NCBI GenBank assembly: GCA_024681475.1
Contig: JAILAT010000059.1
Span: forward strand, 1 to 46,487
Source: Bacteroidales bacterium
GTDB taxonomy: Bacteria > Bacteroidota > Bacteroidia > Bacteroidales > P3
Reading direction: 5' to 3'
DNA: 46,487 bases
The notes under the pieces are model-generated. The model had not been told where the DNA came from. It worked only from the letters and a program-made list of their open reading frames with translations, and made no database searches. Shown piece after piece: positions 10,501 through 42,886 of this stretch. Made by a program: the position numbers and the translations under genes. Every line of letters starts with the position of its first letter. Within the stretch, counting starts at the first letter, position 1.

Positions 10501-13500
10501 AGGAGCGTAGCCTTGTCGACGGAAATGGTGACCGCTACTCATGCTGGCCGCAGACACTGATTTCGGGTTCCACCTACCTGACGCGTAACGGCGGTTACAT
10601 CTCGAATGCTGTTGACGGCGTGGGCGTTATCCCCACCATGAATTTCACCCTGCTGTACAGCACTAATCTGAGTACCAGCATCAGTCGCGACGTGAAGTTT
10701 ACCTTCCATGAGTTTAAACCAGATGGTACCTATGTGGGACCTGTGGAGGTGACGGTGAACATCAATACGGTGCTGTCCGACTTCGAACAGTTGGAGTGCC
10801 CCGTGCTGGCCATGTACAACGAGGGAGTCTCCAACAAGTATGTGCGTAGTGTGACCATTCCTGCCTCGTTCCAGCAGCGAGACATCTATCTGGCCAACGT
10901 GGAGTGGTACATGAATCCCACCGTGGTGGCTTATGGCGAGGGTGTGCATGCCAACGATTTCCACATCCAGTCGCGCGAGACTGCGGTGTCCGACAACAAC
11001 CATTTCGGCTTCTATGTAAAACCATCAGAGCATTCGTCGGAGAATGTGAGTAACATTCTGGGTTGGTATGCCGTCAAGGATTCCTTCGATGTGTATAGTT
11101 TAGCCACGGCAGCTTACCAGCGCTACACCGGCACGTCGAACGTTCCCGACCAGGTGACCTATAACAGTGGCACTGTGGTGAGAGGCGACGGTGTGACCTA
11201 CGACAATATGACCGCAGCCTTTGGCGCCGGCGGTGAGCATAACCCCGAGAACGGCCTCTGGATAGGCACATTGGACGGTCGTGCCGCTGCGACATTGGAG
11301 GTGTCGATGAACTTCGACGGCTTGCAAATCTACCACACGCACTTCTCGGCAGGTGATCCGGGTCCCTTGGCCTATGTGAACCTGACATTCAAGTATGTGA
11401 ACACCAAAGCCACGTTGTCGGCAGGCAACTATGTGGCCAAGACAGGATACTTCAACGTGCTGGTGGCATTGCGCACCCGCGAATCGGGCGACACCATCTA
11501 TCTGGCCGAAGACTACCTTCTGTCGCGCACTCCCACTGGAGGCAGCAGCCCCTTGACGATGCATTCCTATGAGTATCATAGGGCTCCTGTAAAAATGGCG
11601 GCCACCTATGGTAGCTACTATGCCGACTCTGCCGCGGCATTGGCTGTCTTACTGAATCCTACTACCGACGCAGATCGCCGTCGTATTGAAACTGTTCTGG
11701 AAGAGCTGTATGCCAGCGAGTTGTCGCAAGAGAGCCTCCAGGCCGACTACATCCGTAACAATCCTGACTACTACCTGACCAGCATTGTGCCGGCCATGAA
11801 AATATACCGTGAGGGCGACGTCATCGATATCATGCAGACGCTGAACTATTCCAGCGTGGGTGCCACGACAATCAACTTCGGCGGCGACGAGTCGTACCCG
11901 TTGCAGATTATCCGCTACTCGGGCAGCCACTACAAATTCCCCACGGCGGCCTGTGCGCTCTACGACCCGATGTTCAATGTCAACGGAGGCCAGTTGGCCA
12001 TGCACGACGTGCTGCTGAACGGCAGCGGCTGCACCCGCCAGAAGAGCCAACTGGTTGGAGAGTATAATGCCCCTGTACACGGTGATAGAACCCAAGTGAA
12101 TGGTGTCTCCTATTGTGACCACTATCCGCGTACGCGCACATTCCTCTTTGCCAATGCGCCGATGGTGAACTGCACCAACGGCGGCACGGTGAACCTCAGC
12201 CGCAATGTGCGAATGACCAATAACTTCAACAAGAGCAAGAACACCGGTACGGCAGGCGACGGCTACAGCGAGCTTGATGAATCGTCTGACAGACTGTTCA
12301 TGGGCGGTGGCGCTGTGGCGGTGACCGACAATGGCAAGGTGCTGCTGGGCAATGGCGCCCATATCTACGACAACGCAGTGGTTGACTGGGGTGAGGATGG
12401 CTATTTGCCGCTGAACTATGGCGGTGCCATCTATGTCGACGGCGGCCAGCTGACGCTGGGTACCAGCGACAAGGAGTCGACCTTCGACGTGAGCCGCAAC
12501 TTCTATATGCGCAATGTCAGCCCGTTGGCCACGACGACCACCAACCTGGTGAGCGGTACGCCGATGAGCGACACCGCTACGCTGCGCAACGCGCTGTTCA
12601 GAGGGGTGATTAGAGCTGCTGGTACCGTCCACCAGTTCAGTGCCTTCGAGATAGACACCGCATCGCATATCAACAACTACTCGCTGAGCAATGTGTACCT
12701 GACCCGCAAGCCCTGGACGGTTCCCGCCCCGGCAGTGTGTGTGACCCAAGACGACGGCACCATCAGTGCCAGCGACATTGAGGACCATGCCAAGGTGCAG
12801 GGCGATGCGCAGAGCGACGTGATACTCTTTGTCTGCGAGATGACCGACGATTCGCGCGTGGGTATCAGCAAATGGTTCCCGGGCTACGAATACACGCACA
12901 CCTCGTCGGCCAGTGAGCATCTCGACTGCGACGTGCCGCGCGACACCATCGTTGTGGCACGCCCGACGACGACCAACGAGACCCTTACGGACCGTGTCTT
13001 CAAGGCCAACGTGTTCTTCAACGACTCGTCGTTCTACTCGGCCAACTCGATGTTCACGAAGATATACCCCGAGGTGAACTACAACAGGGCATCGCTATCG
13101 CCGACCTATGATGACAATGTGTGGGTCTTCTTCCATGGCTCGCTGAATGCCTACAGCATCTACTTCCAGCGTTGTGCCACCTTCGGCAAGGGCGCGCTGC
13201 CCAAGCTTAGCGAGACGTGCGACGACCAGCGTGTGGTGCTGAAGAACTATGGCGACACCATCTACTTCTGCCAGAACCCTGTGGCTACCTGTATGGCCAG
13301 TACGGACACCGTCTTCTTCCGCGTGGGTGGCGGTTTCTTCCCCTACACTTACAAGTGGGTGGACAGCACGGCGAAGTTCAATACGCCCTCCGAGCCCGTT
13401 GTGGATATGCGTGAGCGTATGACCTTCGGCAGCAACTCCACGGTGATGTCTGACCCCAACCTGGTCAGCCTGGCCCAGCGTGACACCTTCATGCTGCGCA

Positions 13501-20404: not shown

Positions 20405-21286
20405 ATGGCGTTAACAGTCACCTATATTGCCCACAGTTGCTATGCCGTGCAGACCTCCACGGCATTGCTGGTGTTCGACTATTGGAAAGAGCGTGGCGAA
20501 GACTGCTCGATGGCTGCTGTGGAGCGTGGTGAGACGACACCGCCGGAGCCTGAGAAACTGGCGCAGATGCCCCTGCATCGTATCATTGCCGGGCGTGGCG
20601 ACAGACAGCTCTATTTCATCGGCTCCCATTTCCATCAGGACCACTACAACGCCGAAATCCTCACCTTCCCCACAGCGCGTTGCCTGCTGTCCTACGACAC
20701 CGTCAAGCGGCACCGTGTGCCCAAGACATTTCCCGCTGTGGTGCTGCATCCCGGCGATGTGTATGAGGACGAAAATCTGAAACTCCACGCCATCCATTCT
20801 ACCGATGTGGGCATCTCATCGCTGGTCACCTTGCCCGACGGCACCACCCTCTACCACGCCGGCGACAACAACAACTGGTATTTCCCCGAAGAGGAGGACC
20901 AGGACAACATCCACTGCTCGCTGATGGAGATGGAGGGCATCTATCTGGCCACCCTGCGCGAGGTGCGCAAGGTGACACAACACGTCGACCACCTCTTTTT
21001 CCCTATCGACCCACGTCTAGGCAAGGAGATGCTGCGCGGTGTCTTTCAGTGGCTTTGGCACATCGATACCACATGGCTCTATCCCATGCACTGCTGGGAG
21101 CAATGGGACGAGGTCCGCACGTCGCTGGACGAACTCAAGATGCAGTTCCCCGAGTTGGGAGTGGTGCTGCTGCCCGACACAGGGGAGAAGATACAGTATC
21201 AGCCTGCTGATGACGAGGAAGTACCGCTGTGGTACGAGGGCCCTTCAGATGAGATAAAAGACGGCGATATTATCAGAATTGACTGA
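20405..21286 (+). CDS. MBL-fold metallo-hydrolase
   Basis: Predicted cytoplasmic metal-dependent hydrolase of 293 residues. The metal-binding HxHxDH motif is HFHQDH at residues 75-80, and a YHAGDNNNW segment places a further metal ligand at Asp154. A histidine-containing LYPMHCWEQW follows near residue 225. Taken from the ATG at 20405; the frame could be extended seven codons to a TTG at 20384, but the protein from the ATG starts directly with the MALTVTYIAHSCYAV strand expected of this fold. The substrate cannot be predicted. It resembles the UlaG-like/uncharacterised MBL branch. Confidence 0.88.
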   Translation: MALTVTYIAHSCYAVQTSTALLVFDYWKERGEDCSMAAVERGETTPPEPEKLAQMPLHRIIAGRGDRQLYFIGSHFHQDHYNAEILTFPTARCLLSYDTVKRHRVPKTFPAVVLHPGDVYEDENLKLHAIHSTDVGISSLVTLPDGTTLYHAGDNNNWYFPEEEDQDNIHCSLMEMEGIYLATLREVRKVTQHVDHLFFPIDPRLGKEMLRGVFQWLWHIDTTWLYPMHCWEQWDEVRTSLDELKMQFPELGVVLLPDTGEKIQYQPADDEEVPLWYEGPSDEIKDGDIIRID

Positions 21287-21422
21287 ACTTTAGTATAATA
21301 TACAACGATAGTAACTGTTCCGCTTTATCAATACGCTCCTTGTATTAGGTATCGTGGCGATTGTTCTCTTTGTTGTCGTGCTGCCCGATCGGGAGCGCCT
21401 CTTTACGGGCCTTTTTATGTCA

Positions 21423-22817
21423 TCATTTGTCGTTGGCCAAGGCTTGGCCAATCTCTTTTTGCAACAGGCCCAGCCGTTGGATGCTGCTGTGCTTGAAAAG
21501 CCATAATGTCCAGTAGCAGAGGTTTCTGCGCGTCTTGCGCAGCATTGCGACGGTAGGGCCACTGAGGCGTGCGCCGAGGTGTGCCCATGCTACAGCCACC
21601 AGCCCCCACCAGGGTCCGATGTCCCATAGCTGGCTCATCCACAAGCCGTTGGCAAAGCACATGACCAGGCCGATGGCGATGGTGTAGAGTATGGTGGAAA
21701 AGAAGCGGATGCCGTAGTTGACGGAGCTGCGGAACTGGGGGTCTTTGATCATGCGGCGTACCACCAGGCTGGTGGGCACAAAAGTGGTGGGATAGCATAG
21801 CAGCATGAACAGCAGCACCCACCGCACGGGGGCGAAGAGTACTGCCGCCGTCACCAGTCCGGCCAGTGCCAGCAGGGGGAGCAGCGTGACGAGGATTGAA
21901 TTGTGGAAGCAGGCTGTCTTCACATTGATTCTCATCTTTTTGCAGATGTTGCGGTAGGATTTGGCCTTGTCGAGCAGCGGCAGGGTCGTGTCGGGGGCCT
22001 CGTTGAGCCGTCTGTCCATCGTTGTAGCGACCAGCTGGCGCATCTTGAAGCGGTTCCAGGCGTTGTTTTTCAGCTTCTTGCTTTTCAGCAGCGGCCGTGT
22101 GGCAATGTTGCCGAGGTCGTAGATGGCGTCGTAGTGCTCTTCGCTACGGATATCGTGCATCTGGGCGCGCAGTGCTGGGGCCAGCGCGTCGCGCATCTGG
22201 TTGAGCGCCACGGGCTCGTTGCTTTCGAAGGTCTCCATGAAAGGCTGCACGGGGATGGGGTCGCCGATGTTGACCACCAGGTTGCTGTAGGGCTCCTCAT
22301 ATTCGTCGAAGTCGATTCCCGTGGGGACGATGTAGAGTGGATGGTCGCCCAGCTTCTTCTGGGTCTCGCCGGCGATGCGGAACATTCCCTTCACCAGCGG
22401 CAGCAGGCGGTGCTTGTTGTTGTGGCGTCCTTCGGCCATGAGGCAGAGTGGATAGCCGTCGAGCAGCACATCACGCGATTTGGCGAAGATGTCGTCGTTT
22501 TTCGACAGGTTTTCCTTGCCGTCGCGGATGCGATAGACGGGCAGGATTTTCAGGAAGGTGAGGATGGCTCGCACCGTAGGTCTGGCGAAGATGTCGCTAC
22601 GCGCCAGAAACACTGGCGGTTTGGGCGAAAAATTGAGCACCGCCAGAGGCTCCATGAGGGCCTGCTGATGGCAGGGAGCGATGATGTAGGCTCCCTGTGT
22701 GGGCAGTTTGTCGAGGCCACGCACCACGAAGTGGTTGTAGTGGCAGCGTGCCCCGAATTGCACCAGGGGGCTGAGAATGAGATAGAGTCGGTTTTTGTCC
22801 TGTATAGCTTTGCTCAT
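21423..22817 (-). CDS. PlsC-like acyltransferase with C-terminal membrane domain
   Basis: A 464-residue protein, probably a 1-acyl-glycerol-3-phosphate or related acyltransferase. Residues about 25-250 match the PlsC-like domain: an AYIIAPCHQQALME segment in place of the usual NHxxxxD (here His50 and Glu56), a PVFLARSD segment, and CLMAEGRHNNKHRLLPL in place of FPEGTRS. Residues about 320-430 contain about four membrane helices, which suggests action at the inner membrane in phospholipid or lipid A-type metabolism. The start is placed at the ATG at 22817 (MSKAIQDKNRLYL); an upstream extension to 22991 overlaps a promoter and looks non-coding. The altered catalytic acid and PEG motif make the exact substrate uncertain. 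Confidence 0.85.
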   Translation of the reverse strand: MSKAIQDKNRLYLILSPLVQFGARCHYNHFVVRGLDKLPTQGAYIIAPCHQQALMEPLAVLNFSPKPPVFLARSDIFARPTVRAILTFLKILPVYRIRDGKENLSKNDDIFAKSRDVLLDGYPLCLMAEGRHNNKHRLLPLVKGMFRIAGETQKKLGDHPLYIVPTGIDFDEYEEPYSNLVVNIGDPIPVQPFMETFESNEPVALNQMRDALAPALRAQMHDIRSEEHYDAIYDLGNIATRPLLKSKKLKNNAWNRFKMRQLVATTMDRRLNEAPDTTLPLLDKAKSYRNICKKMRINVKTACFHNSILVTLLPLLALAGLVTAAVLFAPVRWVLLFMLLCYPTTFVPTSLVVRRMIKDPQFRSSVNYGIRFFSTILYTIAIGLVMCFANGLWMSQLWDIGPWWGLVAVAWAHLGARLSGPTVAMLRKTRRNLCYWTLWLFKHSSIQRLGLLQKEIGQALANDK

Positions 22818-22923
22818 GGCGTTGCCTTTTCTGTTCTTTGTTCCGTTTCTAAGGATGCCAAAATATGCAGATAATACTGTTTCATAGCTATTTATCTGCG
22901 TTTGGGCTTTCCTTAGCAATCCA

Positions 22924-22931
22924 CAAAGATA
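22924..22931 (-). promoter_or_regulatory. -7 box of the acyltransferase promoter
   Basis: TATCTTTG on the minus strand, matching the Bacteroidota -7 consensus TAnnTTTG. No clear TTTG lies at the right distance upstream, so only the -7 element is claimed. It predicts a leader of about 100 bases before the ATG at 22817 and supports that start over the longer ORF. Confidence 0.6.
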
Positions 22932-23000
22932 CATAAAAAAATTGCTTTCACATACGAAAAAAGTATTTTTTGAGTTATCCACGAAAAGCAAAAAGCGCCC

Positions 23001-23708
23001 ATGAAAGTGAAGACCCCTATACTGATCGTGATATTCCTGCTTTTGGCAGCAGTAGGCCCTGTGTGGGCACAGGAACCTACGGGCACTGACAATTCACGTC
23101 GTGTCAATGTTGCCGAAGCACCTGATCTTCAGCCCATACAGGAGACTTCTGCCCGCCGCAATGCCTCGCCGGTGGCGCGTTCTTATATGGATCGCCTGCT
23201 GGTGCGCGCCACCATTGTCGACGGTGACACGATACCCTATTTCATCCTCCAGCCCGTGAAGATTGTGCAGACATGGTCCCTGCTTTCCAAAGAGGAAATA
23301 CGTAAGAACCAGAAACTTATACGCAATGTCAAGAAGACGTTGCCCTATGCCAAGGAAGCCAAGCTGCGACTGCAGCAGTTGGACCAAGAGCTGGCTGCCA
23401 TGCCCCCCAAGAAGCGCAGCAGCTATGTGAAACAGGTGGAGAAGGAGTTGCTTGACGATTTCGAAGATGAGCTGATGGACCTCACCGTCAGCCAAGGCAA
23501 GATTCTGATGAAGCTGGTGGACCGCGAGACGGGCAGTTCCTCCTATGCGCTTATCAACGAATTCCGAGGCTCGGTCAGGGCCTCGTTCTACCAGTCCTTT
23601 GCACGTATGTTCGGCATCAATATGAAGCAACGTTTCGATCCGGCGCACAACAAGGATGACGAACTCCTTGAGCGCGTGGCGCGCTCGGTGGAGCAGGGGA
23701 GAATATAA
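23001..23708 (+). CDS. DUF4294 domain-containing protein
   Basis: A 235-residue exported protein. The signal peptide MKVKTPILIVIFLLLAAVG ends in VWA-QE near residue 24. The mature part has the DUF4294 layout: VDGDTIPYFILQPV near residue 75, a charged helical section (KLIRNVKKTLPYAKEAKL) and a conserved ILMKLVDRETG...YALINEFRG near residues 170-195. Function is unknown; probably periplasmic. It is divergent from the acyltransferase gene, and the NlpC/P60 gene follows after 12 bases, so these two are likely an operon. Confidence 0.85.
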   Translation: MKVKTPILIVIFLLLAAVGPVWAQEPTGTDNSRRVNVAEAPDLQPIQETSARRNASPVARSYMDRLLVRATIVDGDTIPYFILQPVKIVQTWSLLSKEEIRKNQKLIRNVKKTLPYAKEAKLRLQQLDQELAAMPPKKRSSYVKQVEKELLDDFEDELMDLTVSQGKILMKLVDRETGSSSYALINEFRGSVRASFYQSFARMFGINMKQRFDPAHNKDDELLERVARSVEQGRI

Positions 23709-33984: not shown

Positions 33985-35139
33985 ATGAAGACAAAAAACG
34001 TTGTACGACTGATGCCACTCTTGCTGGCTGCCTTAGTGAGTGTTTCCGCCATGAGCGGCGGCAAAGCCCCTGCCAAGCAGGATCCGATACGACTCTATCG
34101 CTTCACCGAGAACGGCCTGCAAGGCTTCATGGACTGCACGGGCAAGACGGTGATTCCCGCTCGATGGGTGGCAGTTGACAACTTCTGCGACGGATTGGCG
34201 GCGGTGAAGGAAGATGGCCTCTGGGGGTTCATCGACACGAAGGGCAACTATGTCATCGAGCCGCAATATGAATTGACATACGGTTTCCTCGACGGACTGG
34301 CCGCTGTGCAGGATACGGGCACTTTCCAATGGGGCTTCATCGACAAGCAGGGCCGCTGGGTCATCGACCCCATCTGGTATGAGGCTTTCTCCTTCGAGGA
34401 CGGCTTGGCGCCGGTGGCTGTGAAGATGAAGGCGGATGTCCCCGAAGATTACTATGAATATTATGGACTATATGGCTTCATCGACAAGACGGGTAAGCTC
34501 GTCGTAGAGCCGCAATTTGAATATGCTACAAGCTTCTACGAAGGGATGGCCATGGTGAAAAAGGACGGCAAATGGGGCTACATCGACCCGAAGGGGAATA
34601 TGGTCATCGAGCCGCAGTTTGGCTATGGCAGCGATTTCTCGGAGGGGATCGCGAGTGTGACGCGTGGGGAATATATCACCGATCCGTGGATATACATCAA
34701 CAAGAAAGGCGAACAGATTATCCCCCGTGAGTTCCACATGACGGGCTACTTTTCCGAAGGACTCGCCCCGGTTCACGCTGCCGACCTGGGCGACCGTGAA
34801 GTCTACATCGACACCAAAGGCAATGTCGTTCTCAGGGGCGATTTCACCCAGGCGCTATCCTTCAGCGAAGGGCTGGCACCCGTGCGTGTGGGCGACAAGT
34901 GGGGCTATATCAATAAGAAAGGTAAACTGGTCATCGAGGCCAAGTTTGACGATATCAACCCCTTTGTCGGTGGCATTGCCCGCGTGTATATGTACACCGA
35001 TGACGAGAATGCCATTCGCGGCTACATCGACAAGAAAGGTCGCTGGGTGCGCAGCTGGCCCAGCGATGAGTGGGAGGATGCCTATGGCGAAGACCCGGTG
35101 GACATGGAGTTTTACGAGGAAGAACCCGCCCAGGAATGA
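33985..35139 (+). CDS. WG-repeat protein (nine repeats)
   Basis: A 384-residue exported protein (signal peptide, residues about 1-25). It is built of nine WG/KWG-type repeats with the core [WY]G[FY]ID..G: LQGFMDCTGK, LWGFIDTKGN, QWGFIDKQGR, LYGFIDKTGK, KWGYIDPKGN, WIYINKKGE, EVYIDTKGN, KWGYINKKGK and IRGYIDKKGR. Each is followed by a V[IV][EDR]P-type strand and an FxEGLAxV strand. It ends in an acidic tail (PVDMEFYEEEPAQE). WG repeats are thought to fold as beta-structures in envelope proteins; the ligand is unknown. Its second half is closely similar to the truncated WG gene at 38758-39606. Part of the operon from 32415. Confidence 0.88.
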   Translation: MKTKNVVRLMPLLLAALVSVSAMSGGKAPAKQDPIRLYRFTENGLQGFMDCTGKTVIPARWVAVDNFCDGLAAVKEDGLWGFIDTKGNYVIEPQYELTYGFLDGLAAVQDTGTFQWGFIDKQGRWVIDPIWYEAFSFEDGLAPVAVKMKADVPEDYYEYYGLYGFIDKTGKLVVEPQFEYATSFYEGMAMVKKDGKWGYIDPKGNMVIEPQFGYGSDFSEGIASVTRGEYITDPWIYINKKGEQIIPREFHMTGYFSEGLAPVHAADLGDREVYIDTKGNVVLRGDFTQALSFSEGLAPVRVGDKWGYINKKGKLVIEAKFDDINPFVGGIARVYMYTDDENAIRGYIDKKGRWVRSWPSDEWEDAYGEDPVDMEFYEEEPAQE

Positions 35140-35180: not shown

Positions 35181-36611
35181 ATGAAACGATTAGCGATACT
35201 ATTGCTGGCGCTCGTGCTGGGAGGCACAGCGATGGCGCAGATGTTGAACCCTGCAATCTGGAAATTTAAGGTCGTAGAGGTCTCCGATAAGGTGGTTGAG
35301 CTGCAATTCCGCCTGTCGCTGAATAAGGGATGGGTCATCTATTCGCAGCAATCCGACCCCAACGGACCTATTCCCATTGAGTTCACTTTCAACGACTCCA
35401 AAGACTATTTGCGGCTGGGCAAGGTGGATGAGCCCAAGCCCATCAAGGAGTTCGACGATGAGTTCGGCGTTGCGGTGGCCTATTTCAAGGACGAGGTAAT
35501 TTTCAGCCAGACGATTGTGAGGGCTACCGACAAGGCTTTCACGGTGCAGGGCAAGATTTCCTATCAGCTTTGCAAGGATGGTTCGACCATTGCGCCTAAT
35601 GAACAGCCTTTCACCTTCATGGTGCCTGCGAACGGTGACAACGATGTGCTGTTCGATTTCTCAGAGAATGGCAAAGAGGGCTATATGGACCGCACAGGCA
35701 AGACGGTCATCCGTCCCCAATGGGACGGCGTGCGACCTTTCCAGGAGGGCGTTGCTTGGGTGCGTCAAGGCGATAAATGGGGTCTTATCGACACGACGGG
35801 AAAATATATTGTGAAACCTACTTACGGTGGCACCAATGATTTCACCGAGGGGTTGGCCATGGTGGTCATCGGTCCCGAGTTTGGAGGCAAGTGTGGCTAT
35901 ATCGACAAGACAGGCAAGATGGTTATCAGCGCCCGCTTCGGTTATGCTGGTGAGTTTCACGAGGGATTGGCGTTTGTGCAACTGGACTATGAGAATGGCA
36001 AGTATGGCTATATTGACAAGACGGGCAAGATGGTGATTCCGCCGCAGTTCGATTACGCTATGAATTTCTCCGAGGGACGCGCCGTGGTGCGCATGAATGG
36101 CAAATATGGCTACATCGACAAGAGCGGAACGATTGTGATTGACTGTAATTATTCCAATGCCAGGGAGTTTTGCGATGGCTTGGCCGATGTCAGCTTCAAC
36201 AACAAGTATGGTTTTATCGATTTGCAGGGCAGAGAGGTGATAGCGTTGAAATATCAGAACGTCATTCATTTTTCGGAGGGCGTGGCTTTGGTAAATGCCG
36301 GAACCAACTGGGCTGATGACAAATACGGTTTCATCAATAAGCGCGGCGAGACGGTGATACCCTGCCAATACAAGGATGCCAATATTTTCAGCGAAGGGCT
36401 GGCCGCTGTGCGTGTAGGCAACCTGTGGGGTTTCATCGACCATAACGGCAAGATGGTTATCCAGCCTCAATTTGCAAGTGGTGGCGTGTTTATGGATGGA
36501 TTGGCACTGGTCGGCATCACCCGCAACGGCGAGAGCTGGCTGGCCTATATTGACAAGCAGGGCCGCGTGCTGAAAGAGTGGCCTGATACGGAAGTCTGGG
36601 ATTTTGAATGA
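35181..36611 (+). CDS. DsbD N-terminal-like domain fused to nine WG repeats
   Basis: A 476-residue exported protein (signal peptide ending AMA-QM). Residues about 20-155 look like the N-terminal immunoglobulin-like domain of DsbD (FRLSLNKGWVIYSQQSDPNGP, FSQTIVRATDKAFTVQGKIS). The usual redox pair CxxxxxC is incomplete: Cys131 is present in QLCKDGSTIAPNE, but the second Cys is replaced, so disulfide exchange is unlikely. Residues about 160-470 carry nine WG repeats (GYMDRTGK, WGLIDTTGK, CGYIDKTGK, YGYIDKTGK, YGYIDKSGT, YGFIDLQGR, YGFINKRGE, WGFIDHNGK, LAYIDKQGR). The combination suggests a scaffold in which the DsbD-like part serves as a binding module. It lies 41 bases after the WG gene and 12 before the transglutaminase-like gene. 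Confidence 0.85.
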   Translation: MKRLAILLLALVLGGTAMAQMLNPAIWKFKVVEVSDKVVELQFRLSLNKGWVIYSQQSDPNGPIPIEFTFNDSKDYLRLGKVDEPKPIKEFDDEFGVAVAYFKDEVIFSQTIVRATDKAFTVQGKISYQLCKDGSTIAPNEQPFTFMVPANGDNDVLFDFSENGKEGYMDRTGKTVIRPQWDGVRPFQEGVAWVRQGDKWGLIDTTGKYIVKPTYGGTNDFTEGLAMVVIGPEFGGKCGYIDKTGKMVISARFGYAGEFHEGLAFVQLDYENGKYGYIDKTGKMVIPPQFDYAMNFSEGRAVVRMNGKYGYIDKSGTIVIDCNYSNAREFCDGLADVSFNNKYGFIDLQGREVIALKYQNVIHFSEGVALVNAGTNWADDKYGFINKRGETVIPCQYKDANIFSEGLAAVRVGNLWGFIDHNGKMVIQPQFASGGVFMDGLALVGITRNGESWLAYIDKQGRVLKEWPDTEVWDFE

Positions 36612-36623
36612 AAATAATCGGTT

Positions 36624-38117
36624 ATGAGAAAAATAACGTTACTGATAATAGCGTTGCTGCTGGCTGGCGTGGCCAGCGCGCAGGTGGACCGCGACGAGTT
36701 CAACAAGCGTCAGCAGCAGATGCGCGAGCAGTTTGAGAAAAACAAGAACGCCTCGCAGCGGCGCTACGACGAGTCGCGTCGCAAGGCCGAGGAAGAATTC
36801 GCGGCCTTCCGCAAACGTGCCAACGAGGAGTATGCCGCCGCCATGCAGCGCGCCTGGACACGCATGGAAGTGCAGCCCGCGGAGGTGAAGAAGGAGGAGC
36901 CCGCTCCCCCCATGCCGCCGGCACCGGCACCCGATAAGATTCCGACAACCATGCAGTTGCCTGCTGCCGAAGTGGTGCCACCTCTCGCCAAGCCGAAACC
37001 GCTGCCGGCACCGCCGATTCCCGAGCCCGACGAGGGCACCCCGACGTTGCAGTTCGCTGTCTACGGTGCTCCCTGCAGCGTGCACACCTCCAACGAGGAG
37101 CTGCGTTTCACGCTCTCCTCTGTCGACGAGAAGGGGGTCGCCGAGGCATGGCGCAAACTGTCGCAGGAGAAATACGACGGCTTGCTGCACGACTGCCTGG
37201 CGCGTCGCGACGAATACCATCTGGACGACTGGGGCTATATGCGTCTGCTCCAGAATGCCTCGGAAAAGCTGCTCGGCAAAGGCACCAACGAGGCGGTGTT
37301 GTTGCAGATGTATCTGCTGACACAGTCGGGCTATCGTGTGCGCCTGGCGTATGCCGACGGCCATCTCATGCTGCTCATGCCCTTCAACCGCACCGTTTTC
37401 GGATACAAATCGCTCTATGTCGACGGCATCAAGCATTATCTGCTGACGCGCACCAATGTGAAGAGTGTCTATGTCAGCGAGGTGGGCTTCCCCCACGAGC
37501 AGGTGGCCAGCGTGCAGCTCTCCACGCTGCCCCTATTGGAATCCAATCCGCAGCCCAAACGCACCTTCGCTGCCGAGCACTTCGGCACCCTGTCGGCTTC
37601 TATCGGCGTGAACAAGAGTCTGATAGACTATATGAGCGACTATCCCCCCAACGACGCTTGGGACGGTTATGTCCATGTGGGCCTCAGCAACCAGGTGAAG
37701 GATGCGCTCTATCCCGTACTCAGCAGTCAGCTTGAGGGCAAAAGCAACAAGAAGGCTGTCACCATGCTGCTCGACTTCATGCACACAGCTTTCGAATACG
37801 CCACCGATGGCGAGCAGTTCGGCTACGAGCGTCCCTTCTTTGGCGACGAGAGCTTCTACTATCCCCAGAACGACTGCGAGGACCGTGCCATCCTTTTCAG
37901 CATTCTCGTGCGCGACCTGCTGCATCTCGATGTCGTGCTGGTCCACTGGACGGGTCATCTTGCCACCGCCGTAGCCTTCCCCGAAGAGGTCGAGGGCGAC
38001 TATTTTGTCCTCGACGGCCGCCGCTACACGGTGTGCGACCCCACCTACGAGGGCGCCGGCGTGGGCATGACGATGCCCGATTTCCAGAACAAGAACGCCA
38101 AACTGATTAAGCTATGA
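36624..38117 (+). CDS. exported coiled-coil, Pro-rich, transglutaminase-like protein
   Basis: A 497-residue exported protein (signal peptide ending VASA-QV). Residues about 22-75 form a charged coiled coil (RDEFNKRQQQMREQFEKN, ESRRKAEEEFAAFRKRA). Residues about 88-135 are a Pro-rich linker. The C-terminal part holds a transglutaminase-like fold with a plausible catalytic triad: Cys418 in NDCEDRAILFS, His445 in HWTGHLATAVAF, and Asp472 in VCDPTYEGAGVG. This is the papain-like Cys-His-Asp order of bacterial transglutaminase-like proteins, which may be peptidases, amidases or cross-linking enzymes. Its place beside WG-repeat proteins suggests work on envelope proteins or peptidoglycan peptides. 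Overlaps the next gene by four bases (ATGA), so the two are translationally coupled. Confidence 0.82.
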   Translation: MRKITLLIIALLLAGVASAQVDRDEFNKRQQQMREQFEKNKNASQRRYDESRRKAEEEFAAFRKRANEEYAAAMQRAWTRMEVQPAEVKKEEPAPPMPPAPAPDKIPTTMQLPAAEVVPPLAKPKPLPAPPIPEPDEGTPTLQFAVYGAPCSVHTSNEELRFTLSSVDEKGVAEAWRKLSQEKYDGLLHDCLARRDEYHLDDWGYMRLLQNASEKLLGKGTNEAVLLQMYLLTQSGYRVRLAYADGHLMLLMPFNRTVFGYKSLYVDGIKHYLLTRTNVKSVYVSEVGFPHEQVASVQLSTLPLLESNPQPKRTFAAEHFGTLSASIGVNKSLIDYMSDYPPNDAWDGYVHVGLSNQVKDALYPVLSSQLEGKSNKKAVTMLLDFMHTAFEYATDGEQFGYERPFFGDESFYYPQNDCEDRAILFSILVRDLLHLDVVLVHWTGHLATAVAFPEEVEGDYFVLDGRRYTVCDPTYEGAGVGMTMPDFQNKNAKLIKL

Positions 38118-38656
38118 GGAAAACACTGCTGATAGCTTCGGCATGCCTGTTGCTGCTGGCTGCGTGTCATCGCGGTGAGAAACAGGCGGTTCCCGAGGAG
38201 ACAATCCCCGAGGTGCCGGTGCCTGTCGTCGTGGGCGACTCGCTGCCGCTGTCGGATGGCGACGACAACGTCGGGAATCGTCCCCGGCAGTATACCCTCG
38301 AGGAGGACAGCGCCGAAATCACACAGCTGAGGATTTTTGCCCGCAAGCAGCGCACCATCTACAGCCCTGCGTTGCTGCTGGGCGAATGGAAGCGCGGCAC
38401 CGAGCACGAGGTCTATCTTGCCGACGGCACGGGTATGATGTGGGACACCTCCGACGACGTGATGCGCGAAGAGGCGCAACATTTCGAATGGACCCTTGAC
38501 AGCAATCTGCTGACCATCATGTGCCGCCTCGAGCTAGGCGGCGTGCTCCCCAAACGCTATGTGGTGACATTCGTCGACGACGAAAACCTGGCCTACAGCA
38601 GCCACCTCGGCGAGGCCTATCTGCTGGACAAGGTGGCCGACGCGCCTAACATCTAG
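38114..38656 (+). CDS. small lipocalin-like lipoprotein
   Basis: A 180-residue lipoprotein; the signal peptide ends in LAAC with Cys18, followed by HRGEK. After an acidic spacer the C-terminal part has a LLGEWKRGTEHEVYL start, an FEWTLDSNLLTIMCRL strand and a YVVTFVDDENLAYSS strand, the GxW-type lipocalin-like layout seen in two other lipoproteins of this window. The start codon overlaps the stop codon of the transglutaminase-like gene (ATGA), which argues for coupled expression. Function unknown. A weak 5-bp hairpin (38668-38672 with 38678-38682) follows. Confidence 0.8.
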   Translation: MRKTLLIASACLLLLAACHRGEKQAVPEETIPEVPVPVVVGDSLPLSDGDDNVGNRPRQYTLEEDSAEITQLRIFARKQRTIYSPALLLGEWKRGTEHEVYLADGTGMMWDTSDDVMREEAQHFEWTLDSNLLTIMCRLELGGVLPKRYVVTFVDDENLAYSSHLGEAYLLDKVADAPNI

Positions 38657-38688
38657 CTACAGCCTTACGGGGTGATGCCCCGACGTGC

Positions 38689-38901
38689 TTATTTCCCTTT
38701 GCCTCTGTGCGATGCTCCCCGTTTGGGGCGATGTGACTTGTTGCTTTTCGCGCCGCGTTGTTTCTCTTGCGATTTGTTGCGGTTGCCCTCTTGGTGATTG
38801 CCGCCTTTCGTGTGGCTGCGGTCGCCGCGGCCCCCACGCGGTGCGACGGGCTCGCTGTCGTCGACGAGGTCGAAGTCTATCAGTTTCTTCATCATGTCGA
38901 C
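38689..38901 (-). pseudogene. remnant of the 3' end of an RNase R gene
   Basis: On the minus strand these 71 codons read VDMMKKLIDFDLVDDSEP followed by a basic low-complexity tail ending in KGK and a TAA stop. The intact rnr at 40547-42886 ends in the same VDMMKKLIDFDLVDDS core with a different K/R-rich tail. At DNA level 38852-38901 is identical to 40683-40732. Similarity stops abruptly at about 38901, where WG-repeat coding sequence in the opposite direction begins. The upstream part of this rnr copy is absent. It is a leftover from recombination, or from acquisition of a related strain's segment, since the tail differs. Confidence 0.85.
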
Positions 38902-39606
38902 ACCGCCACACGCCGCTGGGGCTTTGTCGACAAGAGTGGACGATGGGTCATACAGCCGCGTTATCTGGATGCCTACTTTTTCACTGATGGCCTTGCGCCG
39001 GTTGAGGTGGAGGGTTCTGGTGGCGAGGACGGAACGGGCCTGTGGGGCTACGTCGACAACAAAGGCAAGGTGGTCATCGAGCCCCAGTTTGGCTACGCCA
39101 GCGACTTCTCTGAGGGGCTGGCGAGTGTGACACGTGGCAAGTACATCACCGACCCGTGGATATACATCAACAAGCAAGGCGAGCAGGCCGTCCCACGCGA
39201 GTTCCGCATGGCGGGTTATTATTCGGAAGGGCTAGCTGCAGTCTCCGCACCGAACCTGGGCGACCGTGAAGTTTACATTGACACCAAAGGCAATGTCGTC
39301 ATTCGGGGTGATTACTCCCAAGCGATCGGCTTCAGCGAAGGGTTGGCACCCGTGCATGTGGGCTACAAGTGGGGCTTCATCGACAAGAAAGGCAAACTCG
39401 TCATCGAGGCCAAGTTCGACGATGTCAATGGTTTTCACGAAGGCCTAGCACGCGTGTATATGTACACCGATGAGGACAATGCCATCCGTGGCTACATCGA
39501 CAAGAATGGCCGCTGGGTGCGGAGCTGGCCCAGCGACGAGTGGGAAGACATCTATGGCGATGACGAAGAATACGACTACGAAGAGGAGCCTGTGAACCAA
39601 GATTGA
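38758..39606 (+). CDS. 5'-truncated WG-repeat gene fused to antisense rnr sequence
   Basis: Open frame of 282 codons from a TTG at 38758. From about 38907 it encodes WG repeats closely similar to the second half of the WG gene at 33985 (RWGFVDKSGRWVI, LWGYVDNKGKVVIEPQF, EVYIDTKGN, KWGFIDKKGKLVIEAKFDD, and a final DNAIRGYIDKNGRWVR). It has lost the first two repeats and the native signal peptide. The codons from 38758 to 38901 are the antisense of the rnr remnant, yet read as a signal-peptide-like stretch (FLLRFVAVALLVIAAFRVA, then AAP). No in-frame ATG occurs before the WG part, and TTG starts are rare in this group. It may be a pseudogene or a gene with a newly acquired N-terminus. I favour decay, at about two to one. 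Confidence 0.6.
   Translation: MFLLRFVAVALLVIAAFRVAAVAAAPTRCDGLAVVDEVEVYQFLHHVDTATRRWGFVDKSGRWVIQPRYLDAYFFTDGLAPVEVEGSGGEDGTGLWGYVDNKGKVVIEPQFGYASDFSEGLASVTRGKYITDPWIYINKQGEQAVPREFRMAGYYSEGLAAVSAPNLGDREVYIDTKGNVVIRGDYSQAIGFSEGLAPVHVGYKWGFIDKKGKLVIEAKFDDVNGFHEGLARVYMYTDEDNAIRGYIDKNGRWVRSWPSDEWEDIYGDDEEYDYEEEPVNQD
38852..38901 (+). repeat. 50-bp exact direct repeat, copy 1 (rnr-derived)
   Basis: Identical to 40683-40732 in the same orientation. Both copies encode, on the minus strand, the VDMMKKLIDFDLVDDS core of RNase R. Flanking sequence diverges on both sides. Confidence 0.9.
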
Positions 39607-39660: not shown

Positions 39661-40161
39661 TTATTGCCTACGATTGAGCGAATAGCGCTTTATCTGTTCT
39701 AGATGGTGGTGGCTATATTCGGCATGCCCATTGTTGTAATAGCTTTCGATGACCATTTTGGAGCCGTCGAGTGTCTGTATGGCAAAGCACTCCCATGGGT
39801 TGTAGGCTATGGTTTCGCCAGCATAGACAAAAAGGGAATCGCCCTTGATTTGCCAGTTGAAGGTCTTGTAGGGATTGTCAAATCCGCCATTATGAACCAT
39901 ACGATCGCTCATGTACCAACGTGAGGTACCGTCCCGGTTGAACTCAACAGCGTCGTAGCCGGAATAACTGCTGTCGTCCACGTAATTGGTTTCCTCAGCG
40001 TAGGTCTCATCTGTGATGTCGTGCATCCACCAATATAGACTTTGCACATCCCAGATGCCGACAATCAATTCCTCATTTTCCGATTGGGTGTTGTCGTCTT
40101 CGCAGGCGATCATCATTCCGAGGGCGCACACCATCGCGCCGAGCCAAAAAATTTTCTTCAT
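39661..40161 (-). CDS. lipocalin-like lipoprotein
   Basis: A 166-residue lipoprotein when started at the ATG at 40161 (MKKIFWLGAMVCALGMMIAC, Cys20, followed by EDDN). A longer in-frame start at 40257 would bury the signal peptide and is rejected. The mature protein opens with IVGIWDVQSLYWW, has a VEFNRDGTSRWYMSD strand and a TFNWQIKGDSLFVYAG strand, typical of lipocalin-like lipoproteins with a GxW start. The acidic residues after Cys resemble a surface-export signal of Bacteroidota lipoproteins. Convergent with the WG gene, 54 bases apart. Function unknown. Confidence 0.8.
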   Translation of the reverse strand: MKKIFWLGAMVCALGMMIACEDDNTQSENEELIVGIWDVQSLYWWMHDITDETYAEETNYVDDSSYSGYDAVEFNRDGTSRWYMSDRMVHNGGFDNPYKTFNWQIKGDSLFVYAGETIAYNPWECFAIQTLDGSKMVIESYYNNGHAEYSHHHLEQIKRYSLNRRQ

Positions 40162-40546
40162 ATTGTTATTGTTGATTTGGTTGATTATTCCGTTCTCTGA
40201 TTCCGTTTCCAACAAACTGCGCGCACTTGCCCATAGTGTCATAGGTTTCCACGTCAAGATAACGCAGTGTTGGTGTTTTTATTGTTGAATATTTGATATT
40301 TATATTGTAGAGTTAGCCATTGTATATTGTTTACTGACAAGTTTGTCAAGTTGCTGCCGCCGTTGTCCAGTCCTCCTTGTCATGTGGCGCCTTGATTGTT
40401 GTCCGTTCTGTAATAAAGACACATGAGATGCACTTTTTGTGCATCTCATGTGTGATTTTTTTTTGTAGAAAGCTGAAAAACAAACGACTCGATGCGCTTG
40501 TTTCTTTTACCGAAATCTGACAAGCAGGTGTCTTTGTCAGGTCTGG
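40162..40546. other. 385-bp intergenic region between lipoprotein and rnr genes
   Basis: No ORF I can support. It holds the leader of the minus-strand lipoprotein (no clear -33/-7 pair seen), a strong 15-bp hairpin with a plus-strand T-run at 40419-40464, and a 7-bp hairpin at 40517-40540 just beyond the rnr stop codon that could serve as a weak rnr terminator. Confidence 0.6.
40419..40464 (+). terminator. strong hairpin with plus-strand U-tract
   Basis: Perfect 15-bp inverted repeat (40419-40433 with 40439-40453), TTTTT loop, then GA and nine T residues (40456-40464). The T-run is on the plus strand, although both flanking genes are on the minus strand. It may end plus-strand read-through from the WG operon or an unrecognised plus-strand RNA. 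On the minus strand it is followed only by CTTTATT and would be weak. Confidence 0.75.
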
Positions 40547-42886
40547 CTACCTCTTTTTCCGGCCGCCCTCTTTCTTTCCGCGTGTCTTTGGCGTTTTTGT
40601 CTTCTGTTCGTTTCGCTTGCGGGATTTTGTTGCTCTATTGTTATTCTTGCTTCGGGCGCCTCTGGCGGGTTGGGGAGCGGGATCGCTGTCGTCGACGAGG
40701 TCGAAGTCTATCAGTTTCTTCATCATGTCGACGGCGCGCACACGGATGCGCACGGGGTCGCCCAGCTTGTAGCATTTGCCGTGGCGGCGGCCGATGACCT
40801 GATAGTTGTCTTCGTCGAGCATATAGTAGTCGTCTTTCAGGCTGCCGATGGGTATCATGCCTTCGCACTTGTTGCCTTCAATCTCGGCATAGATGCCCCA
40901 TTTGCTGACACCCGAGATGAGTGCATCGAACTCCACGCCCAGCTTGTCGCTGAGGAATTCGGCCTGTTTGTACTTGATGCTGGCGCGCTCCGCGTCGGCG
41001 GCTTTCTTCTCCATCAGCGAGCAGTGCTTGCAGTATTCCTCGTACTCCTCGGCATCGACGCTGCTGCCGCCTTGCAGATAGCGGTCCAGCAGACGGTGCA
41101 CCATCAAGTCGGGATAGCGTCGTATCGGCGAGGTGAAATGGGTGTAGAAGGGGAATGCCAGGCCGTAGTGGCCAATGTTCTCGGTGGAGTAGTAGGCCTT
41201 CGACATGGTGCGGATGGCGATGGTGTCAATCATATACTCTTCGCCGCGGCCTGCAATGTCTTGAAACAGATGGTTGTAGGAGTCGGCCAGCGCCTTGCGG
41301 CTGCCCACGCGCATCTTGAAGCCCAGCTTGGCCACAAACTCCACGAAGGTGTTCAGCTTCTCGGGGTTGGGTTCGTCGTGCACACGGTATACGAAGGTCT
41401 TGGTTGGCTGGGTCTTCGGGGTGTTTGAAGCCTTGCGGCTGCTGTTTTTCCCACCATTCTTTCCGATGTGCTCGGCCACATTTTTGTTGGCCAGCAGCAT
41501 GAACTCCTCTATCAGCCAGTTGGCCTCTTTCTGCTCTTTGATGTATACGCCGATGGGTTTTGCGTTGTCGTCGAGCTGGAATTTCACCTCCTGGGTCTCG
41601 AAGTTGATGGCGCCCTCTTTGTAGCGCTCTTCGCGCAGCACCGTGGCCAGCTTGTGCAGCAGCAGGATGGCCTCGTCGGCTTCGCGGCACACCTCGCCGT
41701 CGGGTGACGCCACGCCGGTCTCGCCGGTGTCTATCACCTGTTGGGCCTCTTCGTAGGCGTAGCGGCGGTCGGAGTTGATGACCGTCTTGCCCATCCAGAG
41801 GTCTTTCACCTCGGCACGGTCGTTCATCTGGAGCACCACGCTGAAGCACAGTTTGTCCTCGTGGGGCCGCAGCGAGCAGACCTCGTTGCAGAGTTTCTCG
41901 GGCAGCATGGGGATGGTGCGGTCCACCAGGTATACGCTGGTGCCGCGAGTGTAGGCTTCGCGGTCGATGGCGCTGCCGGGTTTCACGTAGTACGACACGT
42001 CGGCGATGTGTACGCCCACTTCGTAGCGTCCTTTGCCCAACACCTTGAACGACAGGGCGTCGTCAAAGTCTTTGGCGTCGGCGGGGTCGATGGTGAAGGT
42101 TGTAGTGGAGCGGAAATCGCGTCGCGAGGCTATCTCTTTCTTGGTGGGATTTTTGATTTTGGAAGCCTCCTTTTCGGCTTCTGCCGGGAAGTCGAGGGGG
42201 AAGTCGTATTCGGTGAGGATGGACTGCATCTCGACGTTGTTGTCGCCCGGGCGGCCCAGGCGTTTCACCACGCGTCCCACGGGGTTGTGCATGCGCTCGG
42301 GCCAGTCGGTCATCTCCACCACGGCTTTCTCGCCGTCTTCGGCGCCGCCCAACTCGCTGAGGGGTATGAAGATGTCCACCACCATGGCGCGGCTGTCGCA
42401 CACCAGGAAAGCGAAGTCGGTGTTCTTCTGTATGCGTCCCACGAAGCGTGTCTTGGCGCGGTGCAGTATCTCTTTCACTTCGCCTTCGGGCTTGTGCATC
42501 TTGCGACGGGGGAACATGAGCACCTTCACCGTGTCGCCGTGCAGTGCATGGTGCGTGTAGTTAGGGGCTATCATGATGTCTTCGCCGTCGCCCTCCTGGG
42601 GTATCACGTAGGCCTTGCCGGTCTGCTTCATGTCGATGGTGCCCACCACATAGTTCTGCGGCAGCAGGTCGTCGTCGATGTGTCTGGGGTTCAGTTTGTA
42701 CTTGCCGCGGCCTTCTTCGATGAGGATGCGGTTTTCGGCCATCTCAAGCATAGTGCTTTGCACCAGTTGGCGCGAGGCCTTGTCGTAGGCTCCCACCTTG
42801 GCGGCCACCTGTTTGTGGTTGTAGGCCGTGAAGGGAGTGTTGGCGAATATTTTAAGTATCTGTAAGTTAATGTTTTCTTTGTCCAT
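40547..42886 (-). CDS. rnr: ribonuclease R
   Basis: Processive 3'-5' exoribonuclease that degrades structured RNA. At 779 residues it has the expected order: N-terminal helical and cold-shock domains (residues about 1-230), the RNB catalytic domain with DPADAKDFDDALSF from residue about 266 (metal-binding aspartates) and HFTSPIRRYPDLMVHRLLDRY, a C-terminal S1 domain (EFDALISGVSKWGIYAE), and a K/R-rich tail ending GGRKKR. The M3 peptidase gene lies 40 bases upstream on the same strand, so the two may be co-transcribed. A remnant of a second rnr 3' end lies at 38689-38901. Confidence 0.96.
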   Translation of the reverse strand: MDKENINLQILKIFANTPFTAYNHKQVAAKVGAYDKASRQLVQSTMLEMAENRILIEEGRGKYKLNPRHIDDDLLPQNYVVGTIDMKQTGKAYVIPQEGDGEDIMIAPNYTHHALHGDTVKVLMFPRRKMHKPEGEVKEILHRAKTRFVGRIQKNTDFAFLVCDSRAMVVDIFIPLSELGGAEDGEKAVVEMTDWPERMHNPVGRVVKRLGRPGDNNVEMQSILTEYDFPLDFPAEAEKEASKIKNPTKKEIASRRDFRSTTTFTIDPADAKDFDDALSFKVLGKGRYEVGVHIADVSYYVKPGSAIDREAYTRGTSVYLVDRTIPMLPEKLCNEVCSLRPHEDKLCFSVVLQMNDRAEVKDLWMGKTVINSDRRYAYEEAQQVIDTGETGVASPDGEVCREADEAILLLHKLATVLREERYKEGAINFETQEVKFQLDDNAKPIGVYIKEQKEANWLIEEFMLLANKNVAEHIGKNGGKNSSRKASNTPKTQPTKTFVYRVHDEPNPEKLNTFVEFVAKLGFKMRVGSRKALADSYNHLFQDIAGRGEEYMIDTIAIRTMSKAYYSTENIGHYGLAFPFYTHFTSPIRRYPDLMVHRLLDRYLQGGSSVDAEEYEEYCKHCSLMEKKAADAERASIKYKQAEFLSDKLGVEFDALISGVSKWGIYAEIEGNKCEGMIPIGSLKDDYYMLDEDNYQVIGRRHGKCYKLGDPVRIRVRAVDMMKKLIDFDLVDDSDPAPQPARGARSKNNNRATKSRKRNEQKTKTPKTRGKKEGGRKKR
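40683..40732 (+). repeat. 50-bp exact direct repeat, copy 2 (inside rnr)
   Basis: Identical to 38852-38901. This copy is in its native context, the end of the S1 domain of the intact rnr on the minus strand. Confidence 0.9.

What the first reader, a model, noticed from the sequence alone, without database searches (positions are those of the whole stretch)
38689..39606. A WG-repeat gene joined to antisense RNase R sequence, which reads as a signal peptide
The last WG gene lacks its own N-terminus. At about 38901 it switches, within about five bases, into the antisense of an rnr 3' end. Antisense reading of the Lys/Arg/Gly-rich RNase R tail gives a basic-then-hydrophobic stretch (FLLRFVAVALLVIAAFRVA, then AAP) in frame with the WG repeats. 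The rearrangement may have created a new signal peptide by overprinting. Seen: the fusion, the open frame and the rnr match. Inferred: that it is expressed and exported. A plain pseudogene with a TTG start, or a chimeric assembly, are the alternatives.
Basis: partly seen in the sequence, partly recalled or inferred. Interest (0 to 1): 0.75.

Follow-up and report, generated by a model that had tools for sequence, protein, structure and literature searches.

The report
Truncated WG gene fused to RNase-R antisense
In a genome related to gut Bacteroidales the front of a WG-repeat gene is missing and the rest is joined in frame to the reverse side of a leftover RNase R gene end; this is most likely an ordinary rearrangement scar, and the signal-peptide look of the joint is likely a by-product of the lysine/arginine-rich RNase R tail rather than a working new export signal.

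Summary
A rnr 3' end (38689-38901, minus strand, with its own stop) meets a 5'-truncated WG gene (38899-39606, plus strand) within 3-6 bases. An intact rnr (40547-42886) shares 50 identical bases with the fragment; the WG part matches WG1 of the same window from residue 110 on. Order and orientations are those of an unequal-recombination or duplication join. The joined frame is open from 38737 and signal-peptide-like from TTG 38758/38767.

The overprinted signal peptide is weakly supported. No in-frame ATG precedes 39208; 0-1 of the 20 bases before each candidate start are A, against 5-14 for 23 window genes. The database copy starts at GTG 38812, behind the hydrophobic stretch. Antisense rnr tails are hydrophobic as a class: 25 of 40 reach mean hydropathy 2.0, and 7 of 40 (the fragment included) pass a crude rule against 3 of 174 other stretches. 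None of 58 matching congeners (of 98 searched) has a free-standing rnr tail. No strain comparison exists. WG1/WG3 dN/dS of 0.2 may date from before truncation. Likely a recent pseudogene.

The parts
38689..38901 (-). 3' end of an rnr copy: core VDMMKKLIDFDLVDDS, basic tail, stop TAA at 38689-38691
   Evidence: 50/50 identical bases to 40683-40732; among 117 RNase R tails's listing the best match is the window's own rnr (125 against at most 113), and DFDLVDDS is found only there; in the genus search too the own rnr is the best match after itself (39.1 bits against 36.2)
38896..38901 (.). junction, GTCGAC (3-6 bases of possible microhomology)
   Evidence: rnr identity ends at 38901, WG1 homology starts at 38899; GTCGAC occurs 33 times in the window, about 14 expected from base composition
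38899..39606 (+). 5'-truncated WG-repeat gene (WG3), homologous to WG1 from residue 110 on
   Evidence: 82% nucleotide identity over 39043-39564; dN 0.20, dS 0.96 over 234 codons; PF14903
38758..38835 (+). antisense-of-rnr-tail stretch that reads as a signal-peptide-like N-terminus (TTG 38758 or 38767)
   Evidence: passes a crude signal-peptide rule; hydropathy 2.84, rank 6 of 40 antisense rnr tails
38812..38814 (+). GTG start used by the database version of the protein (264 aa, without the hydrophobic stretch)
   Evidence: P0001
33985..35139 (+). WG1, the closest relative of WG3 in the window, with its own signal-peptide-like N-terminus
36624..38656 (+). gene pair C (transglutaminase-like, below the Pfam cut-off) and D (lipoprotein-like), upstream of the junction
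   Evidence: D follows C in 16 of 79 C loci
39661..40257 (-). X, lipoprotein-like gene between WG3 and rnr
   Evidence: homologue next to rnr in G119 and G018
40547..42886 (-). intact rnr (RNase R)
   Evidence: PF00773 E 1.3e-110; best other relatives listed are at most 81% identical

Best explanation
The leftover 3' end of one RNase R gene copy and roughly the last 70% of a WG-repeat gene are joined in frame at position 38901, most likely by a single unequal (non-allelic) recombination or duplication event, which would have left a 5'-truncated WG pseudogene whose signal-peptide look is likely an accident. Shown: both partners are broken at the same point, each keeps the orientation of its intact counterpart in the window (rnr minus, WG1 plus), and they stand in the order right-end then left-end (rnr, then WG), which is the geometry of a duplication or unequal-crossover join. 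Shown: 3-6 shared bases at the join. Inferred: the two partners came from diverged versions of the locus, because the WG parts and the rnr tails differ strongly while the rnr core does not. Inferred: the front of the WG gene, with its start and signal peptide, was lost, and transcripts running on from the C-D genes would cross the fusion without an efficient start codon. The hydrophobic reading follows from the code: Lys, Asn, Gln, Glu and GGC-Gly codons read backwards in register give Phe/Leu, Val/Ile, Leu, Phe/Leu and Ala.
For: Junction and geometry. No in-frame ATG before 39208; candidate starts 38758-38812 have 0-1 A in the 20 bases upstream against 5-14 (mean 8.9) for 23 window genes. Predicted local folding at those starts is -9.4 to -21.2 against a mean of -4.6 kcal/mol. 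Database protein starts at GTG 38812, without the stretch. 25 of 40 rnr tails read antisense in register reach mean hydropathy of at least 2.0 over 15 residues; 7 of 40, the fragment included, pass the SP rule against 3 of 174 other stretches of unmatched length. No TANNTTTG element near 38600-38760 (the Bacteroidetes motif is recalled, and it is not enriched in the window, 16 found against 12 expected, so its absence weighs little). WG1/WG3 dN/dS about 0.2 means that WG3's body was under constraint for most of its history, so truncation is probably recent. In 58 of 98 congeners with a match, all matches but one chance-level one (G089:C41, E 0.009) lie in long open frames of 754 aa or more, the size of whole rnr genes, so no free-standing rnr tail was seen.
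Against: The frame is open and WG3's body carries no stops. The fragment passes the SP rule and ranks 6 of 40 for hydropathy. 4 of 23 window genes fold at least as strongly at the start as the weakest candidate (-9.4), D among them at -9.9. That 22 of the 23 comparison genes start with ATG is partly by construction: my ORF caller preferred ATG. A sigma-70-type promoter-like match (9 of 12) lies at 38625-38652 on the + strand, and the region has more such matches than shuffles (8 against 2.1). A simple one-step duplication predicts equal ages, but 14 informative codons of the rnr core show no third-position change while WG1/WG3 differ at 97 of 234; about 6e-4 under equal rates, too small a figure because the stretch was picked for its identity. 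No locus with D facing rnr was found (0 of 16 C-D loci, several with under 1 kb beyond D), so the supposed partner haplotype is unseen. 40 of 98 congeners gave no match at all even to their own rnr tail, so diverged fragments could be missed. The crude rule is not a validated predictor.
Confidence: 0.72

Rival explanations
1. Overprinting made a new Sec signal peptide: translation from TTG 38758 or 38767 reads the antisense of the rnr tail as an export signal and rescues export of the truncated WG protein.
For: Open in-frame fusion; passes the crude rule from both TTG codons; WG1, WG2, C and D just upstream all pass it, so an exported WG protein would be in keeping; no terminator-like site on the + strand between D and WG3, and a promoter-like match at 38625-38652.
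Confidence: 0.08
2. The WG body is still made as a shorter cytosolic protein from GTG 38812 or from ATG 39208, without the signal.
For: Database gene call at GTG 38812; intact WG repeats; low dN/dS of the WG1/WG3 pair.
Against: Both starts have 1-2 A in 20 upstream bases and strong predicted local folding (-21.2 and -13.1 kcal/mol); the dN/dS signal can predate truncation.
Confidence: 0.12
3. The join is an assembly or binning artefact between two strains.
For: The genome is a draft of 63 contigs, 87% complete; the junction has no exact copy in genome contigs, from which the window's own genome may be left out, and the protein is listed only on its own contig; the two rnr tails look like two alleles.
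Against: Assemblers join at shared k-mers (21 bases or more; recalled), while rnr and WG share only 3-6 bases at the join. A 50-base shared core could swap the tails but cannot create the rnr-WG join.
Confidence: 0.08

Closest known systems
5'-truncated pseudogene at an unequal-recombination or duplication join (known kind, recalled)
   Same: Two intact counterparts nearby, both partners truncated at one short-homology join, right-end|left-end order
   Different: The tails and the WG parts are more diverged than the rnr core, so a simple recent within-genome duplication alone does not fit
Overprinted antisense overlapping genes of E. coli (PMC4683798, PMC9927249: search listing and start of abstract seen only)
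   Same: A frame antisense to a coding sequence is read as protein (proposed here)
   Different: Those abstracts name RNA sequencing (and for the second ribosome profiling); here no expression data exist, the template is a gene fragment and only an N-terminus is in question
WG-repeat proteins (Pfam PF14903)
   Same: WG3 body: five repeat stretches, E 1.3e-52
   Different: The N-terminal 109 residues of its relative WG1, including the signal-peptide-like part, are missing

Membership tests
WG-repeat family (PF14903) | repeats above the family's curated cut-off | tested here: met
   175.9 bits against a cut-off of 25.6
RNase R 3' end | core in frame with a basic tail and a stop, nearest to the window's own rnr | tested here: met
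   50 identical bases; best of 117 tails; best genus match after itself
Duplication or unequal-crossover join | right-end|left-end order, both partners in native orientation, truncated at the join | tested here: met
   coordinates and strands
Duplication or unequal-crossover join | both duplicated pairs equally diverged (simple within-genome duplication) | tested here: not met
   rnr core identical at 14 informative codons, WG1/WG3 97 of 234 third positions differ; needs diverged partners or later homogenisation
Sec signal peptide | n-region with positive charge, hydrophobic core, small-X-small cleavage site | tested here: inconclusive
   passes a crude rule that flags 9 of 23 window genes and 7 of 40 antisense tails; no validated predictor on hand
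Overprinted gene | transcription and translation of the frame | not testable with these tools
   no expression data
Overprinted gene | conservation of the frame in relatives | tested here: inconclusive
   no exact copy of the junction in genome contigs; no free-standing rnr tail in 58 matching of 98 congeners; next protein relative 41% identical over 71% of the query; no strain of the same species was found, so absence decides little

The most novel reading that the evidence does not exclude
A rearrangement in one step replaced the lost signal peptide of a secreted WG-repeat protein with a new one read from the antisense strand of an RNase R tail; since basic tails read backwards in register are hydrophobic, ends of genes for basic proteins would be a ready-made source of new export signals.
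Probability: 0.07. Interest if true: 0.75.

Novelty: new member of a known kind. Interest (0 to 1): 0.22.

Why it matters
As a pseudogene it is ordinary. What carries over is the control: antisense, codon-aligned readings of Lys/Arg-rich protein tails are hydrophobic and often open, so such fusions can look like signal peptides without selection. If this or a similar fusion were shown to be exported, it would be a clean one-step route to a new signal peptide by overprinting.

Tried and rejected
Looked for the ancestral layout. In none of the 16 C-D loci does rnr face D (several contigs end within 1 kb of D). X lies next to rnr in 1 of the 20 rnr loci (G119) and in G018 (that locus was fetched because X matched there). 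A WG gene follows D in 2 of 16 C-D loci (L171 = G085, L173 = G078), so WG3 could also have been the native neighbour of D; at 38-41% best identity to WG3 these are not clear orthologues, and I could not decide which side of the junction is the newcomer.

Tested whether the fragment's tail is a diverged copy of the intact tail: DNA alignment score 26, reached by 42 of 500 codon-shuffled pairs, so no evidence beyond composition. Considered an integrase-type attachment duplication in the 3' end of rnr: the ORFs listed between the repeats are WG3 and X plus overlapping frames; I saw no integrase but ran no family search on the overlapping frames. Considered a single recent within-genome tandem duplication: the unequal divergence speaks against it. 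Searched for close strains by protein (each listed the best 120 of capped candidates): best RNase R relatives at most 81%, none of the same species. P0001 is listed with 3 member sequences but one contig; I could not see the other members. WG1 itself did not appear in its own search, unexplained. Paper searches (RNase R, lysine-rich, C-terminal; tandem duplication, microhomology, join point) gave listings that I did not use. An earlier control for a second rnr core was weak: only 19 of 36 same-genus genomes matched the core at all and few candidates per genome were scored, so I repeated it.

Full report
What is there. The window is one contig of a draft genome (G000, 63 contigs, 87% complete). 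Its genus includes genomes whose contig lengths equal those of uncultured Bacteroidales or Bacteroidetes assemblies, several from ruminants (for example 112027, 103987 and 58366 bases). On the plus strand run WG1 (33985-35139), WG2 (35181-36611), C (36624-38117) and D (38114-38656), with gaps of 41 and 12 bases and a 4-base overlap; then comes the frame in question. On the minus strand are X (39661-40257) and the intact rnr (40547-42886). Pfam finds WG repeats in WG1, WG2 and the fused frame, and RNB, cold-shock and S1 domains in rnr.

The junction. Bases 38852-38901 are identical to 40683-40732 in the intact rnr; outside this stretch ungapped identity drops at once. Read on the minus strand, the fragment is VDMMKKLIDFDLVDDSEP followed by a basic tail and a stop at 38689, with 32 bases between it and the end of D. 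WG homology starts at 38899 and corresponds to WG1 residue 110 onward. The join has 3-6 shared bases (GAC or GTCGAC).

What kind of event. Both counterparts lie in the window, and both broken pieces keep their counterparts' orientation. The order at the join is the right-hand partner (rnr) followed by the left-hand partner (WG), which is the geometry of a duplication or unequal-crossover join. Ages do not agree with one simple duplication. WG1 and WG3 differ at 97 of 234 third positions (dN 0.20, dS 0.96), while 14 informative codons of the rnr core show none (about 6e-4 under equal rates and independence; the stretch was chosen because it is identical, so the figure overstates the case). The rnr tails are as different as those of unrelated congeners (0.45 against 0.42 +/- 0.09 at core identity under 0.85, n = 740 pairs), although the other five pairs with core identity of 0.97 or more, three of them among three nearly identical sequences, have tails at least 0.80 alike. 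The fragment still belongs with this species' rnr: among 117 RNase R tails taken's listing its best match is the window's own (125 against at most 113), and DFDLVDDS occurs only there. In the genus search the own rnr again comes first, narrowly (39.1 against 36.2 and 35.7 bits). I therefore favour unequal recombination between diverged versions of the locus, with an identical core kept or homogenised; this part is inferred.

Relatives. The downstream side of rnr varies in the genus. In the 20 rnr loci, a WG gene follows rnr on the same strand in four (G092, G071, G089, G080) and X follows it in one (G119); X also follows it in G018. Searching 98 congeners with the fragment's 70 residues, 58 matched at E 0.01 or better. 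All matches but one lie in open frames of 754 to 1065 aa, the size of whole rnr genes; the exception (G089:C41, E 0.009, 108 aa, residues 8-66) is at chance level. So no free-standing rnr tail was seen, with the reservation that 40 of 98 gave no match even to their own rnr. D follows C in 16 of 79 C loci; rnr faces D in none of the 16 and a WG gene follows D in two.

Is the antisense stretch a signal peptide? The frame has an in-frame stop at 38734-38736 and then TTG 38758, TTG 38767, TTG 38791, GTG 38794 and GTG 38812, with no ATG until 39208. By a crude rule the first two starts give signal-peptide-like N-termini and the last three do not. The same rule flags 9 of 23 window genes. Antisense rnr tails in the codon-aligned register behave this way as a class. 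Of 40 distinct tails (both window copies and some near-identical ones included), 25 reach mean hydropathy of 2.0 over 15 residues and the fragment ranks sixth; 26 have no antisense stop in the tail, though the fragment, open for 55 of 70 codons, is not one of these. 7 of 40, the fragment included, pass the signal-peptide rule in the aligned frame and 2 of 40 in each other frame, against 3 of 174 stretches of other genes, whose lengths were not matched. The minus strand over the same join is also open (162 aa). A join in the right one of three frames therefore goes a long way to this look.

Would it be translated? Upstream of the 23 window genes, 5-14 of 20 bases are A; upstream of the five candidate starts, 0-1. 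Predicted local folding is -9.4 to -21.2 kcal/mol against a mean of -4.6, but 4 of the 23 genes fold at -9.8 or stronger. The comparison genes' starts were chosen with a preference for ATG, so only the A-content and folding are informative. No TANNTTTG element lies in the region, but the motif is not enriched in the window either. D and WG3 have no terminator-like site between them on the + strand, and a promoter-like match lies at 38625-38652, so transcription is possible. The protein database's copy of this gene starts at GTG 38812 and so excludes the hydrophobic stretch.

Verdict. The most likely reading is a recombination scar that left a 5'-truncated WG pseudogene. A chimeric assembly is less likely, because rnr and WG share too few bases at the join for a k-mer assembler to merge them (assembler behaviour recalled). 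In the literature, overprinted or antisense overlapping genes are reported in E. coli (PMC4683798, PMC9927249; listings and start of abstracts only). The search 'signal peptide, overprinting, antisense, bacteria' listed 8 papers, none of whose titles names a signal peptide made this way. 'WG repeat' with 'Bacteroid' gave one paper.

Noticed in passing
L086, L087, L088, L089 (G092, G071, G089, G080): A WG-repeat gene sits directly downstream of rnr on the same strand in four relatives, whereas the window's WG3 faces rnr.
   Followed up: partly
G005:C18:5680-7983 and 21137-23440: Two full rnr genes, facing each other, on one contig; the first has the same score and query range as the rnr of G063, so contamination, transfer or a chimeric contig is possible.
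   Followed up: no
window 40419-40453: A 15-pair hairpin with a T run, a terminator-like site, between X and rnr.
   Followed up: no
window 4545-15878: A 3777-aa protein whose only Pfam match at E 0.001 is a C-terminal secretion sorting domain (PF18962).
   Followed up: partly
window 35181-36611; L136 944-3001: WG2 joins a DsbD N-terminal domain (PF11412) to WG repeats; in G104 a 685-aa gene with 50% identity over 151 residues to WG2 faces rnr directly.
   Followed up: no
window 38689-39177 (-): The opposite strand of the fusion is also open for 162 aa, with the rnr tail as its C-terminus.
   Followed up: no
P0001: The database cluster of the fused protein lists 3 member sequences on one contig; the window's rnr cluster lists 1. 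The other members were not visible.
   Followed up: no
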